DNA of 17,229 nt from Huberarchaeum crystalense [NCBI: Candidatus Huberarchaeum crystalense] (GTDB lineage Archaea; Huberarchaeota; Huberarchaeia; Huberarchaeales). A program made the position numbers and the translations under genes. The notes beneath the pieces are model-generated. The model was given only the letters and a program-made list of their open reading frames with translations, searched no databases and was not told the DNA's origin. Below are positions 2,031 to 15,593 of the stretch, in pieces. The stretch spans positions 6,930-24,158 of the forward strand of contig PFUW01000020.1 of NCBI GenBank assembly GCA_002790315.1. The letters are read 5' to 3'. Position 1 is the stretch's first letter. The number at the start of each line of letters is the position of its first letter.

Positions 2031-2990
2031 ATGGTGCGCAAATTTTTCTGTTTTTTGCTTTTAATTCTTACTTTTAGCAATATTTGTTATGCTGGTGTTT
2101 CTATTGATATTATTTCAGCACCTTTAAGTGCATCTGCTGGCGAAAATCTTCAAATTACAATTAATATTTACAGCGATGTTTATGCTGAGGGACATCTATA
2201 TTCTTATATCTATAAATATGATAAAACTAAAAATAAAACAATTTATGCTAACGAAAAAGGGTGGCAGGAAAACAGATGTGGGTTTAGTATTAATGGAAGT
2301 GAGAAAAAAGTTTTAAAAAACAATATTATAGAAAATGTTGAACCAGGAGAATATATTTATCGAGTTAGGTTTAAAGAAAAAGTAGAAGATAAAACTAAAA
2401 ACCACGATGCTGATATAAAGATAAATGTTGGTAATTATCCAGCACCAAAATCAACTTGTGAAGCAAAATTCATTGGCGAAAAATACTGTAAATTGGACAA
2501 TGTTTATCAAAAATACGAACAAAGCAATTGCAGTCAAATTGAAAAGAAAATTGAGACCTGTAACTTTGGCTGTAAAAATGGGGTTTGTAAGAGCAATACT
2601 TCAACATCTTTGGACGCAGATTTGAACAACACAACAAAAAGTGCGCGCAACTCAACCACAAACACAACAACTTCGGCGAACAATACAGATTTAAATAAGA
2701 ATAACAACACAACAAATAATAATGTAAGTAAGGGTGATGGTGTGAATAAAGACAATACAAGTAAGGGTGATGGTGTGAATAAAGACAATATCTTAGAGCA
2801 GCAAAATATAGAACAAGATGACGCTCCTTATGAAAAAAGTCAAACTATAACAAGCAGAGGCATAACTAAGAATACAGAATTACTTTCTTTATCTGCGATT
2901 TCAGGTATGTTTTCCCAAACTAGCAATCTTTCATTGCTTGGAATGGTTGTTGTTTTGGCTATTATTGGAATAATTTTGTGGAAAATATAG
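2031..2990 (+). CDS. Exported Cys-rich protein with Asn/Thr linker and C-terminal membrane anchor
   Basis: I do not recognise a named family. Residues 1-21 form a signal peptide (MVRK, a hydrophobic core, and a likely cut after CYA). Residues 22-135 look like an all-beta, Ig-like extracellular domain ending in a typical GEYIYRVRF strand. Six cysteines lie within residues 143-186 (143, 153, 167, 177, 181, 186), enough for three disulphides. Residues 190-255 are an Asn/Ser/Thr-rich linker with many N-X-S/T sequons, including two copies of SKGDGVNKDN. Residues 301-317 are a hydrophobic anchor ending in WKI. The topology is that of a surface protein tethered by its C-terminus. It begins 1 bp after the ureohydrolase stop, and the next gene follows 13 bp later. 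Confidence 0.85.
   Translation: MVRKFFCFLLLILTFSNICYAGVSIDIISAPLSASAGENLQITINIYSDVYAEGHLYSYIYKYDKTKNKTIYANEKGWQENRCGFSINGSEKKVLKNNIIENVEPGEYIYRVRFKEKVEDKTKNHDADIKINVGNYPAPKSTCEAKFIGEKYCKLDNVYQKYEQSNCSQIEKKIETCNFGCKNGVCKSNTSTSLDADLNNTTKSARNSTTNTTTSANNTDLNKNNNTTNNNVSKGDGVNKDNTSKGDGVNKDNILEQQNIEQDDAPYEKSQTITSRGITKNTELLSLSAISGMFSQTSNLSLLGMVVVLAIIGIILWKI
2727..2792 (+). repeat. 33-bp in-frame tandem duplication in linker
   Basis: Two 33-bp units (2727-2759 and 2760-2792) agree at 31 of 33 positions and encode SKGDGVNKDN followed by T or I. They lie in the low-complexity linker of the exported protein. Near identity at synonymous positions suggests a recent duplication. Confidence 0.9.
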
Positions 2991-3003: not shown

Positions 3004-3552
3004 ATGGTTATAGAAGCACAAATTATGCAGGATTTTGCAGGACGAAATAGCGAATCTTTAAATGGTTTTGCAGAAAAAATTATTGATGAAATAAAAAAGC
3101 AAATGCTTGATATAAACTTTAAGAAAATAGATATAAGTAAGCCAAAACAAGATGAGAAAACAAAGCTTTTTTTTGTTACTGTTGTTTTAACTGTCAGCGC
3201 CGAACGAATTTCTGATATTTTTAAATTTTACTCCTTTTCTTTGTGGGGTCCAATGTTTATTGATGTTTTATCTCCTATAAAATATGATCTTACCTTAGAC
3301 GAAATGCAAGAAGTTTTTAATATTAACTCCCAAATTATAACTCAAAACACAACCCATCTTTTGCAACAAACGCAACAATCTTCTATATTACAAACCAATA
3401 ACTCAAATAATAATAATAGTAATGCAAACACTAAAACCACAACGCAGACAGATAACTCATATAATAATAGTAATGCAAACACTAAAACCACAACCCTGAC
3501 TAATGAAACAATTATTGACGCGCACACAAAAAAAGATAAAATACCCAAATAA
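3004..3552 (+). CDS. Small protein of unknown function with Asn/Thr-rich tail
   Basis: Not recognised. There is no signal peptide or membrane segment, so the product is probably cytoplasmic although both operon neighbours are exported. Residues 1-115 appear to be one alpha/beta domain: a helix around 18-36, a strand around 55-66 (KLFFVTVVLTVS), then FKFYSFSLWGPMFIDVL and a predicted helix LTLDEMQEVF (96-105). The segment WGPxxIDVLxPIKxDLTLDEMQ looks like a conserved core. Residues 116-182 are low complexity, rich in Gln, Asn and Thr, with a duplicated NNSNANTKTTT unit and a basic end. It lies 13 bp after the upstream gene and 3 bp before the next, so co-expression is likely. Confidence 0.75.
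   Translation: MVIEAQIMQDFAGRNSESLNGFAEKIIDEIKKQMLDINFKKIDISKPKQDEKTKLFFVTVVLTVSAERISDIFKFYSFSLWGPMFIDVLSPIKYDLTLDEMQEVFNINSQIITQNTTHLLQQTQQSSILQTNNSNNNNSNANTKTTTQTDNSYNNSNANTKTTTLTNETIIDAHTKKDKIPK
3411..3494 (+). repeat. 51-bp period repeat in Asn/Thr tail
   Basis: A 33-nt stretch beginning TAATAATAGTAATGC at 3411-3443 recurs exactly at 3462-3494, a period of 51 bp (17 codons). It encodes NNSNANTKTTT twice and keeps frame. Confidence 0.9.
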
Positions 3553-8304: not shown

Positions 8305-8371
8305 TAAGCACTAAAATTACATCTTTTCAACAACACCCTATAAGCACTAAAATTACATCTTTTCAACAACA
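8305..8371. repeat. 36-bp tandem duplication of the argS 3' end
   Basis: A 31-bp sequence beginning TAAGCACTAAAATTACATC at 8305-8335 recurs exactly at 8341-8371, period 36 bp. The second copy contains the argS stop codon and last codons. The first lies outside the gene, so the gene's tail has been copied downstream. Confidence 0.95.
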
Positions 8372-13212: not shown

Positions 13213-14946
13213 TTATTTTTCTATAAAACACTTATTGTTTTTTTGCTCAATATCTTTTTGTGAATTTGGCTCATTGACGCGAAGGCGATTGGTTTCAACA
13301 TCGCGCCTAAGTGTAATGTTTAGTTTGCTGAGAAGTTTGTTTATGAGTGCGTATTTTTCTCCTTTTGTTGCAGTCGCACTTTCTGGCGCGCACATTATTT
13401 CTTTTTTTTCAAACAACATCAACGAGTCAGAAATATATTCTAAAAATGAAAGATCATGATCTACCACTAATGCTGCTTTTTTGTAAATTCTCAGGAAAAC
13501 TTTCAAAAATTTTGCAAGATTTAGCCGTTGCTTTACATCAAGATATGCTGTTGGTTCATCTAAAAGATAAATATCTGCCTCTTTAAAAAGGCAAGCAGCA
13601 ATCCACACTCGCTGCAATTCTCCTCCTGAAAGTGAATTTAAGGGCCTGTTTAGAAGATGAAATATATTTAAGTTGGCGACAATCAAATTGAATTTTTCTG
13701 ATTTTTTTTCTATATTTTTTGGATTTATAAAATCTGCAACAAGGGTTGTTTTATTGGCGCTAATTTCTTGCGGTTTATATGAGATTGTAATTGATGTTTC
13801 AATGTTTTTTTGATCGCTTTTCTCAATACCATACAAAATTTTCAAAAAGGTGCTTTTGCCTGTTGCGTTTCTTCCCAAAATACCAACAATTTCCTCTTGA
13901 AAAATTGTTCCTTGTTCTGAAGTTAGGCAAAAGTTTTTGTAGGTCTTTGTGAAACTTGGAAATAAGAGCAATTTATTTGTAAAATTAATAGTTTTTTTAG
14001 TTCCTGGTTGTGTAAGAGTGATTGGATCACTCATTTTAACATTTTCATCGCGCAAAAATCCGCGAAGAAAGTCATTAATTCCACTGCGACTATTTCTTAT
14101 ATTTGAAACAATTCCAAATGCTCCGGGTTTTCCGTATAAAATATTGATATAATCTGCAACAATATCTAAGACCAACAAATCGTGCTCTACAACAGCACAA
14201 TATTTATTTTGAGAATATTTTCTAATCGCTTTTGTTATATTTATTCGTTGGTAGATGTCTAAGAATGTTGATGGTTCATCAAAAACCAACAAACCAGAGT
14301 TTTTTTCTAGTGTTATGGCGATTGCTGCGCGCTGTAATTCACCCTGCGAAAGTTCTGAAAGATCTTTTTCTAAAATGTTGCTTAATTCTAAATCATTAAT
14401 TATTTCTTTATTTTTAATAATATCTTTGACTTTTTTTGATGGTAGAACCTTTGGTAGAATTTGTGGTTTATAACTAATTTCTATTTTGTTATCATAGAGA
14501 GATTTAAAAAAATCAAAATTTTGCGTGCGGCGGAAAAAATCAACAACATCTTGCTCAGACGCATTCTTGTTGAAATTAGGAATTATTTGTTTGCTTAATA
14601 TGTTCAATATTGTCGACTTGCCTGTTCCGTTTTCTCCAAGCAAACCTACAATTTTGCCTTTTGGAAGAGTAATGAATTTAAACAACCTAAACATATTTTG
14701 TCCATATTGGTGAAATGGATTGCTTAGCTCTTCAGGAAGATTAATTATTTCTATTGCTCCAAAAGGGCATTTTTTTGTGCAAATTCCGCAACCTACACAA
14801 GTAAATTCATCGATTTTTGGGTATTTTTCACTTTTAACAAATTCTATTGTCTTTTGTCCCATTAAAACACGCGGACAAAATCGCGTACATTCATGGCTGC
14901 ATTTTTCAGGAAAACAGTGGTCTATATGAAGGATTGCAATTCGCAT
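13213..14946 (-). CDS. Ribosome-recycling ATPase ABCE1 (Rli1)
   Basis: Splits 70S ribosomes after termination, together with aRF1/Pelota, using two ABC domains and two 4Fe-4S clusters. The N-terminus has cluster cysteines C11, C16, C20, C24 and C50, C53, C56, C60 (CVGCGICTKKCP). ABC1 has Walker A GENGTGKST (104-112), signature LSQGELQR and Walker B LLVFDEPST. ABC2 has GRNATGKST, LSGGELQR and IYLLDEPTAYLD. The family hinge sequence LNITLRRD...NRLRVN is present near the end. At 577 aa it is slightly under the usual 590-600. The ATG at 14944-14946 gives the conserved MRIAILHID start. It is divergent from uS12, and its first 14 codons plus promoter are exactly duplicated upstream. Confidence 0.97.
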   Translation of the reverse strand: MRIAILHIDHCFPEKCSHECTRFCPRVLMGQKTIEFVKSEKYPKIDEFTCVGCGICTKKCPFGAIEIINLPEELSNPFHQYGQNMFRLFKFITLPKGKIVGLLGENGTGKSTILNILSKQIIPNFNKNASEQDVVDFFRRTQNFDFFKSLYDNKIEISYKPQILPKVLPSKKVKDIIKNKEIINDLELSNILEKDLSELSQGELQRAAIAITLEKNSGLLVFDEPSTFLDIYQRINITKAIRKYSQNKYCAVVEHDLLVLDIVADYINILYGKPGAFGIVSNIRNSRSGINDFLRGFLRDENVKMSDPITLTQPGTKKTINFTNKLLLFPSFTKTYKNFCLTSEQGTIFQEEIVGILGRNATGKSTFLKILYGIEKSDQKNIETSITISYKPQEISANKTTLVADFINPKNIEKKSEKFNLIVANLNIFHLLNRPLNSLSGGELQRVWIAACLFKEADIYLLDEPTAYLDVKQRLNLAKFLKVFLRIYKKAALVVDHDLSFLEYISDSLMLFEKKEIMCAPESATATKGEKYALINKLLSKLNITLRRDVETNRLRVNEPNSQKDIEQKNNKCFIEK

Positions 14947-15072
14947 AAGATTTTTAATTTTTTGGTTTGTGTGTTAATAAAAAGATTATTCAGGAAAACA
15001 GTGGTCTATATGAAGGATTGCAATTCGCATAAGATTTTTAATTTTTTGGTTTGTGTGTTAATAAAAAGATTA
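14905..15072. repeat. Exact 84-bp tandem duplication spanning the ABCE1 start
   Basis: 14905-14988 and 14989-15072 are identical over all 84 bases. The unit contains the first 14 codons of ABCE1 (minus strand) and 42 bp of its upstream region, including a TTTTTATTAA TATA-like element about 31 bp before the ATG. The second copy places this promoter and start codon again within the ABCE1-uS12 intergenic region. Confidence 0.98.
14986..15030 (-). other. 14-codon mini-ORF copying the ABCE1 N-terminus
   Basis: On the minus strand an ATG at 15028-15030 opens MRIAILHIDHCFPE and ends at TAA (14986-14988), 39 bp before the real ABCE1 ATG. It exists only because of the 84-bp duplication. It carries the same upstream context as the genuine start, so it should be initiated equally well if transcribed. 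Whether it acts as a leader peptide or is inert cannot be told from sequence. Confidence 0.6.
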
Positions 15073-15107
15073 TGGGCATCATTAAAAAAAGCAAGAGTTT
15101 GCGAACA

Positions 15108-15112
15108 GAGGG
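15108..15112 (+). promoter_or_regulatory. Possible Shine-Dalgarno for uS12
   Basis: GAGGG ends 6 bases before the uS12 ATG at 15119. It is one of the few Shine-Dalgarno-like sites in the window, so this mRNA may carry a leader, with transcription from the duplicated region upstream. Confidence 0.4.
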
Positions 15113-15118
15113 TTTGTT

Positions 15119-15538
15119 ATGGCTTTGATTCGTAAATTATTGAGGCAAAAAAAAGCGCAAAAATTGCAGAAAAAGCGATATGTACACAAATTAATTAAAA
15201 GAACAAAGAAAGGTATTGATCCTCTTGATGGCTCACCTCAGGCGCGCGCACTTGTTTTAGAAAAGCGAACAGTTGAGCAAAAGCAGCCCCACTCAGGTCT
15301 TATTCGCGTTGTTAGGACTCAGCTAATTAAAAGTGGTCGTCAAGTTACAGCATTTTTGCCGAGAGAAGGAGCTGAAAAACATATTGCAGAGCATGATATT
15401 GTAACAATTGAGAGTGTTCATGGCGCGCAAGGTGGAGCAAAGGGTGCTATTCCTGGGGTTAAGTATTTGGTTATAAAAGTTAATGGTGTTTCCCTTGAGC
15501 AAATTCGCCGCGGGAAAAAGCAAAAACCAATAAAGTAA
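15119..15538 (+). CDS. rps12: Small ribosomal subunit protein uS12, with altered decoding loop
   Basis: 30S protein at the decoding centre. Archaeal uS12 features: a basic N-terminal extension (1-32), DPLDGSPQARALVLEK (34-49), QLIKSGRQVTAFLP (68-81), EHDIVTIE (91-98), GAIPGVKYLVIKVNGVSL (109-126) and a basic end. At 139 aa it is a little shorter than the usual 142-147. The nearly universal KQPNSAIRK loop reads KQPHSGLIR (55-63): Asn to His and Ala to Gly in the PNSA motif that contacts the codon-anticodon helix. The gene sits alone between ABCE1 and serS, not in the usual str cluster with uS7 and elongation factors. A second uS12 copy elsewhere cannot be excluded. Confidence 0.92.
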   Translation: MALIRKLLRQKKAQKLQKKRYVHKLIKRTKKGIDPLDGSPQARALVLEKRTVEQKQPHSGLIRVVRTQLIKSGRQVTAFLPREGAEKHIAEHDIVTIESVHGAQGGAKGAIPGVKYLVIKVNGVSLEQIRRGKKQKPIK

Positions 15539-15539
15539 T

Positions 15540-15593
15540 TGTGTTTATTGTATTCATTTATTAAAGAAATGTGTTTATTGTATTCATTTATTA
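15540..15593. repeat. 30-bp period tandem repeat between uS12 and serS
   Basis: A 24-bp sequence beginning TGTGTTTATTGTATTCATT at 15540-15563 recurs exactly at 15570-15593, immediately after the uS12 stop. The rest of this 108-bp gap is AT-rich, with a TATA-like CTAAAAATAA about 17 bp before the serS ATG. Confidence 0.9.

What the first reader, a model, noticed from the sequence alone, without database searches (positions are those of the whole stretch)
14905..15072. Exact 84-bp duplication gives ABCE1 a second promoter and a 14-codon copy of its own start as an upstream mini-ORF
Two adjacent 84-bp copies are identical. Each holds the ABCE1 promoter region, ATG and 14 codons. In the distal copy the reading frame runs straight into TAA (14986-14988), so transcripts from the distal promoter would start with a decoy cistron MRIAILHIDHCFPE* before the real gene. 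ABCE1 is the ribosome-recycling factor, so an upstream ORF in its mRNA would be sensitive to recycling and re-initiation. An autoregulatory leader is possible, though a fresh neutral duplication is the simpler view. The duplication also changes the spacing of the divergent uS12 promoter.
Basis: partly seen in the sequence, partly recalled or inferred. Interest (0 to 1): 0.65.

Follow-up and report, generated by a model that had tools for sequence, protein, structure and literature searches.

The report
Chance tandem duplication before ABCE1
A stretch of 84 letters holding the start of a ribosome-recycling gene is doubled in this tiny archaeal genome, but the genome is littered with such small doublings and this one looks like an ordinary, probably harmless example.

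Summary
An exact 84-bp tandem duplication (14905-14988, 14989-15072) copies the ABCE1 start region; the outer copy encodes MRIAILHIDHCFPE*.

The ABCE1-specific reading is not supported. In 269,869 unmasked bases sampled from this 499,820-base genome there are 47 tandem duplications (period at least 20, at least 85% alike; 17.4 per 100 kb), against 5 in 356,177 bases from 14 other genomes of the domain. All 12 inside genes have periods divisible by three, against 6 of 20 between genes, so as a class they look like real DNA under selection.

Three other genes have an upstream copy of their own ATG. Duplications over starts number 7; 5.8 are expected when gene interiors are avoided (P = 0.34), though only 1.7 under free placement (P = 0.002).

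A second promoter is undemonstrated: an EM search found no positioned TATA-like motif. What is certainly copied is an A-rich start context common in this genome. The 130 bp next to uS12 are unchanged. Whether the mini-ORF is expressed or regulates anything remains untested, and no close relative was available.

The parts
14905..14988 (-). Inner copy of the 84-bp unit: first 14 codons of ABCE1, its ATG (14946) and 42 bp upstream
14989..15072 (-). Outer copy of the 84-bp unit, 100% identical
14986..15030 (-). Decoy mini-ORF MRIAILHIDHCFPE* in the outer copy; start context attaaaaatctt ATG, identical to that of ABCE1
13213..14946 (-). ABCE1/RLI (577 aa): Fer4_RLI plus two ABC_tran stretches
15119..15538 (+). 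Ribosomal protein uS12 (Ribosom_S12_S23), divergent neighbour; its adjacent 130 bp are unchanged by the duplication
2726..2790 (.). Another tandem duplication, 33 bp x 2, inside a 319-aa ORF, in frame
15531..15593 (.). Another tandem duplication, 30 bp x 2, over the uS12 stop codon

Best explanation
It is a recent, essentially neutral tandem duplication, one of dozens in a small archaeal genome that carries short (21-84 bp) tandem duplications at about twelve times the pooled density of the other genomes sampled. Shown: the duplication is exact; such arrays are pervasive, with varied periods; those inside genes keep the reading frame; those over start codons are about as frequent as expected once gene interiors are avoided. 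Inferred: slippage, template switching or end-joining with fill-in made the copy, with 1 bp of junction homology; the inner copy keeps ABCE1's start context and 42 bp upstream, so ABCE1 still works; a transcript that begins before the outer copy would carry a 14-codon decoy ending 39 nt before the true ATG, with at most a small effect; the extra copy will be lost or decay.
For: Tandem duplications: 26 in 160,698 bases (first sample) and 21 in 109,171 (second sample, contigs picked by number), against 5 in 356,177 bases from 14 control genomes. Inside genes 12 of 12 periods are multiples of 3, against 6 of 20 between genes and 8 of 15 at gene edges. Start duplications: 7 observed, 5.8 expected for the 35 arrays not inside genes, P = 0.34. 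Three other genes carry upstream copies of their own ATG: a GTPase with two 12-codon decoys, a TRM5/TYW2-type methyltransferase with two 8-codon decoys, and a 178-aa ORF with one 20-codon decoy. In two less similar arrays (95% and 93%) the upstream start reads ATA, as expected for a decoy of no use, though n is two. None of 29 other ABCE1 loci has an exact repeat of 18 or more bases over the start.
Against: Under free placement start duplications exceed expectation (7 against 1.7, P = 0.002); one of the 7 has its start at the very edge of the array. Three of the four genes with an intact decoy ATG act in or near translation (general knowledge of these families), too few to test. One control genome with 25% G+C also has a raised density (3 in 40,000 bases), so the habit is not unique. 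No genome of the same phylum is held, so age and fate of this copy cannot be seen. No expression data.
Confidence: 0.86

Rival explanations
1. The outer copy is a functional autoregulatory leader: ribosomes that translate the mini-ORF reach ABCE1 by re-initiation, so a shortage of ABCE1 changes its own expression.
For: The mini-ORF has the start context common in this genome (A-rich at -9 to -5, T at -1) and ends 39 nt before the true ATG. ABCE1 is the archaeal recycling factor (identity; role: general knowledge). Start duplications exceed free placement.
Against: The same architecture occurs before three other genes, at about the frequency expected when gene interiors are avoided; identity of 100% gives no sign of maintenance; the inner copy keeps its own start context; in two less similar arrays the upstream start is no longer ATG.
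Confidence: 0.05
2. Assembly artefact: two contig ends overlapping by 84 bp were joined without merging, or the copy number is wrong.
For: The genome is a fragmented, 75%-complete assembly in 74 contigs. Junction homology is only 1 bp, as an unmerged overlap would give. Seven of 28 unmasked contig ends in the first sample carry a terminal repeat, so repeats trouble the assembler.
Against: Array periods vary from 21 to 84 bp instead of clustering at one word size, and 12 of 12 arrays inside genes keep the frame, which artefacts would not do. This speaks for the class; the ABCE1 array itself could not be checked against reads. It lies inside a 34,274-base contig.
Confidence: 0.07
3. The duplication is adaptive by dosage: a second promoter raises ABCE1 or uS12 transcription.
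For: The unit covers 42 bp upstream of ABCE1 and holds TTTTTATTAA at -37..-28 (by eye).
Against: An EM search found no positioned TATA-like motif before first genes, so a promoter in the unit is unproven; frequency at starts is about as expected.
Confidence: 0.02

Closest known systems
Repeat-rich genomes of reduced symbionts, e.g. Portiera of whiteflies (PMC7821994; 12 of 25 matching passages read)
   Same: Small AT-rich genomes, some with many tandem repeats (its table lists 10, 31, 3 and 111 for four Portiera; by column order I take 111 as that of Bemisia tabaci); the paper links instability to loss of replication and repair genes
   Different: Bacteria. The link is not simple: the lineage with a dnaQ pseudogene lists only 3 tandem repeats, and in two stable lineages most tandem repeats overlap genes. 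Here the cause is unknown: a Rad51-family gene is present, NucS and MutS_V gave no match in a 75%-complete genome
Constant-size tandem repeats of Bacillus and other bacteria (PMC8161180; abstract start and passages read)
   Same: Many tandem arrays of unrelated sequence in one genome
   Different: There the unit size is constant (20-21 or 52 nt) and thought functional; here periods run from 21 to 84
Regulatory uORFs and leader peptides (general knowledge)
   Same: A short ORF upstream of a gene
   Different: No evidence here of transcription, translation, conservation or effect

Membership tests
Short tandem duplication (minisatellite-like) | Adjacent head-to-tail copies, near identical, with single-copy flanks | tested here: met
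Short tandem duplication (minisatellite-like) | Belongs to a genome-wide class rather than standing alone | tested here: met
   47 in 269,869 sampled bases against 5 in 356,177 control bases
Short tandem duplication (minisatellite-like) | Position explained by tolerance, without enrichment at starts | tested here: met
   7 against 5.8 expected for arrays not inside genes, P = 0.34; against free placement 7 to 1.7, P = 0.002
Short tandem duplication (minisatellite-like) | Copy number confirmed by reads | not testable with these tools
   No reads available
Autoregulatory uORF / leader cistron | Upstream ORF with a usable start context | tested here: met
   Same context as ABCE1; A-rich context in 104 of 141 first genes
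Autoregulatory uORF / leader cistron | Conserved in relatives | tested here: inconclusive
   Not seen in 29 of 29 distant loci, but no genome of the same phylum is held
Autoregulatory uORF / leader cistron | Specific to the regulated gene | tested here: not met
   Three other genes show the same
Autoregulatory uORF / leader cistron | Transcribed and translated, and alters expression | not testable with these tools
   No RNA or footprint data
Duplicated promoter | Recognisable promoter inside the unit | tested here: inconclusive
   EM search finds no positioned 8-mer motif in -50..-18; column counts show weak T enrichment and G/C depletion near -31..-25
Constant-size tandem repeats (Bacillus type) | One fixed unit size | tested here: not met
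   Periods 21 to 84

The most novel reading that the evidence does not exclude
In this lineage, frequent tandem duplication of gene starts acts as a generator of new cis-regulatory leaders: decoy cistrons that carry the gene's own start signal appear before several translation-related genes (ABCE1, a ribosome-associated-type GTPase, a TRM5/TYW2-type methyltransferase), and some are kept because their effect depends on ribosome recycling and re-initiation.
Probability: 0.05. Interest if true: 0.7.

Novelty: new member of a known kind. Interest (0 to 1): 0.2.

Why it matters
By itself the duplication matters little. It exposes a small archaeal genome with a high load of short tandem duplications, where frame-keeping inside genes shows selection at work and where new decoy start sites arise often enough for their fate to be studied.

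Tried and rejected
Close relatives: the genome-contig scan returned two loci, in a Clostridia and a Bacteroidales assembly, with 26% and 21% identity over part of the protein; I take them for distant ABC proteins. The tool says that records of the own genome may be left out. The genome search holds no other genome of the phylum; the 60 relatives offered are of the same domain only. A DNA search with the 214-bp region in 61 genomes gave, outside the own locus, only short matches of some 15 to 42 bp in the listed rows; two lie at ABCE1 starts.

TATA box: by eye the unit holds TTTTTATTAA at -37..-28. EM over 141 first genes (8-mers) gave a lower likelihood gain in -50..-18 than in a control region (31.1 against 36.4) and no peak in position. 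Column counts did show weak T enrichment and G/C depletion near -31..-25, so a weak TATA signal is not excluded; I claim no promoter.

Repair genes: Rad51-family match present; NucS_C and MutS_V not found. The genome is 75% complete, so the absences are weak and no cause of the duplications is claimed.

Translation bias among start duplications: 3 of 4 with intact decoy ATG, too few to test; the fourth had no Pfam match.

Rows dropped or qualified: 11 of my 40 own-genome stretches plus one of 20 control stretches read as N and were left out of the final counts; the earlier first-sample figures still contained some. The kept stretches still hold 902 N in the own sample. One start-duplication row (L085 9007-9117) has its start at the array edge; it counts in the 7 but not in the statement on decayed starts. 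Eight of the first 20 stretches come from contigs that had shown weak matches to the region, so the first sample was not a random draw; the second was picked by contig number and gave the same density or higher.

Literature searches: only the listed rows and the starts of abstracts were seen, apart from passages of PMC7821994, PMC8161180 and PMC10266531 (the last concerned protein repeats and was of no use). The rows shown held no title or abstract start reporting this duplication or a mini-ORF before archaeal ABCE1; nothing wider is claimed.

Full report
What is there. The window holds an exact tandem duplication of 84 bp: 14905-14988 and 14989-15072, with an unbroken self-match of 85 positions at offset 84. 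It straddles the start of a 577-aa minus-strand gene that Pfam identifies as ABCE1/RLI (Fer4_RLI plus two ABC_tran stretches). The outer copy holds an ATG at 15030 and reads MRIAILHIDHCFPE before a stop, TAA at 14988-14986. The real ATG follows 39 nt later. The divergent neighbour is uS12.

What the duplication changes. On the simple assumption of one ancestral copy, ABCE1 keeps its ATG, start context and 42 bp upstream, and uS12 keeps its adjacent 130 bp (14989-15118). Only the gap between the two start codons grew, from 88 to 172 bp. The remark that uS12 promoter spacing changed is therefore not supported at close range.

The genome. The window lies in a 499,820-base, 74-contig, 75%-complete genome. 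No other genome of its phylum is held. I examined two samples, with the window 288,187 bases, of which 269,869 were in unmasked stretches. TRF arrays with period at least 20 and at least 85% alike: 26 in 160,698 bases and 21 in 109,171 bases, together 47, or 17.4 per 100 kb. Nineteen unmasked stretches from 14 other genomes of the domain gave 5 in 356,177 bases, or 1.4 per 100 kb. Composition alone is not the cause: control genomes with 29% and 31% G+C had none in 20,000 bases each, and one Markov resample had none; but the control genome with 25% G+C had 3 in 40,000 bases, so its density is raised too. Periods run from 21 to 84; the array at ABCE1 has the longest.

They look real and under ordinary selection. 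Of arrays wholly inside genes, 12 of 12 have a period divisible by three; of those between genes, 6 of 20; of those at gene edges, 8 of 15. An assembly artefact would not respect the reading frame. Seven of 28 unmasked contig ends in the first sample carry a terminal repeat (15 of 36 there include eight masked ends), as expected if longer arrays break the assembly. The ABCE1 array itself has not been checked against reads.

ABCE1 is not special. Seven arrays overlap a gene start so that the start region is copied. In four the upstream copy keeps ATG: ABCE1 (14 codons), a GTPase with MMR_HSR1 and MMR_HSR1_Xtn domains (DRG-like by recall; two decoys of 12 codons), a TRM5/TYW2-type methyltransferase (two decoys of 8 codons), and a 178-aa ORF without a Pfam match (20 codons). 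In two less similar arrays, before a UvrD-like helicase (95%) and before PCNA (93%), the upstream start reads ATA. In the seventh the start lies at the array edge. Random placement of the 47 units over the sample gives 1.7 start duplications on average (P = 0.002 for 7 or more). Avoidance of gene interiors accounts for most of the excess: placing only the 35 arrays that are not inside genes gives 5.8 on average, P = 0.34. The observed and simulated definitions differ slightly (array against unit); leaving out the edge case gives 6 against 5.8.

Promoter or start context. By eye the unit holds TTTTTATTAA about 30 bp before the ATG. An EM search over 141 first genes found no positioned 8-mer in -50..-18 and a lower likelihood gain than in a control region. 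Column counts show only weak T enrichment and G/C depletion near -31..-25. What the genome does show is a sharply placed start context: at least four A of five at -9..-5 in 104 of 141 first genes and 33 of 62 internal genes (control positions -29..-25: 17 and 7), and T at -1 in 114 and 34. Both ABCE1 copies carry it. The mini-ORF would thus be a plausible start if transcribed; whether it is transcribed is unknown.

Mechanism. The most likely account is a slippage, template-switch or end-joining event with one base of junction homology that doubled 84 bp, tolerated because the inner copy leaves ABCE1 intact. The decoy probably has little effect. A Rad51-family gene is present; NucS_C and MutS_V were not found, but the genome is incomplete, so the cause of the duplication load is open.

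Comparison. Some Portiera genomes are the nearest precedent for the load (PMC7821994, 12 of 25 passages), with the caveat that repeat number and dnaQ loss do not go together in every lineage there. The fixed-size repeats of Bacillus (PMC8161180, passages) differ because their unit length is constant. Of 30 ABCE1 loci (this one and 29 from other genomes, out of 61 genomes searched), none of the 29 has an exact repeat of 18 or more bases over the start, and none shows uS12 in the fetched flanks of at most 1.5 kb; one has a 22-base repeat further upstream. Those genomes are distant, so this says little about age.

Verdict. A real feature, well described, but ordinary for this genome. The autoregulatory reading is not excluded and stays untested.

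Noticed in passing
Own genome, 203 ATG-started genes of the sample (141 first, 62 internal); e.g. window 14947-14955 before ABCE1: A sharply positioned start motif, A-rich (AAAAA or AAATA commonest) at -9 to -5 with T at -1, precedes most first genes (104 of 141) and 33 of 62 internal ones, while SD-like words are fewer (15 of 141, 16 of 62). In 14 control genomes the A-rich word occurs in 14 of 321 genes and SD-like words in 102 (summed). The 16S rRNA keeps CACCTCCTT at its 3' end. It may be a lineage-specific translation or transcription start signal and deserves its own study.
   Followed up: partly
Own genome: TBP is found but no TFIIB-family match in the 75%-complete assembly, and EM found no positioned TATA-like motif. 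Incompleteness may explain the missing factor.
   Followed up: partly
L052 3158-3355 and L063 6458-6633: Two further genes (an MMR_HSR1-type GTPase, a TRM5/TYW2-type methyltransferase) are each preceded by two decoy copies of their own start, periods 66 and 63.
   Followed up: yes
L057 2620-2734 and L085 12867-12983: Less similar duplications over the starts of a UvrD-like helicase and of PCNA, in which the upstream start codon reads ATA; perhaps decoy starts are removed over time, but only two cases.
   Followed up: partly
window 3410-3494 and 8305-8371: Further short-range exact repeats (34-base match at period 51; 31-base match at period 36), consistent with the same duplication habit.
   Followed up: no
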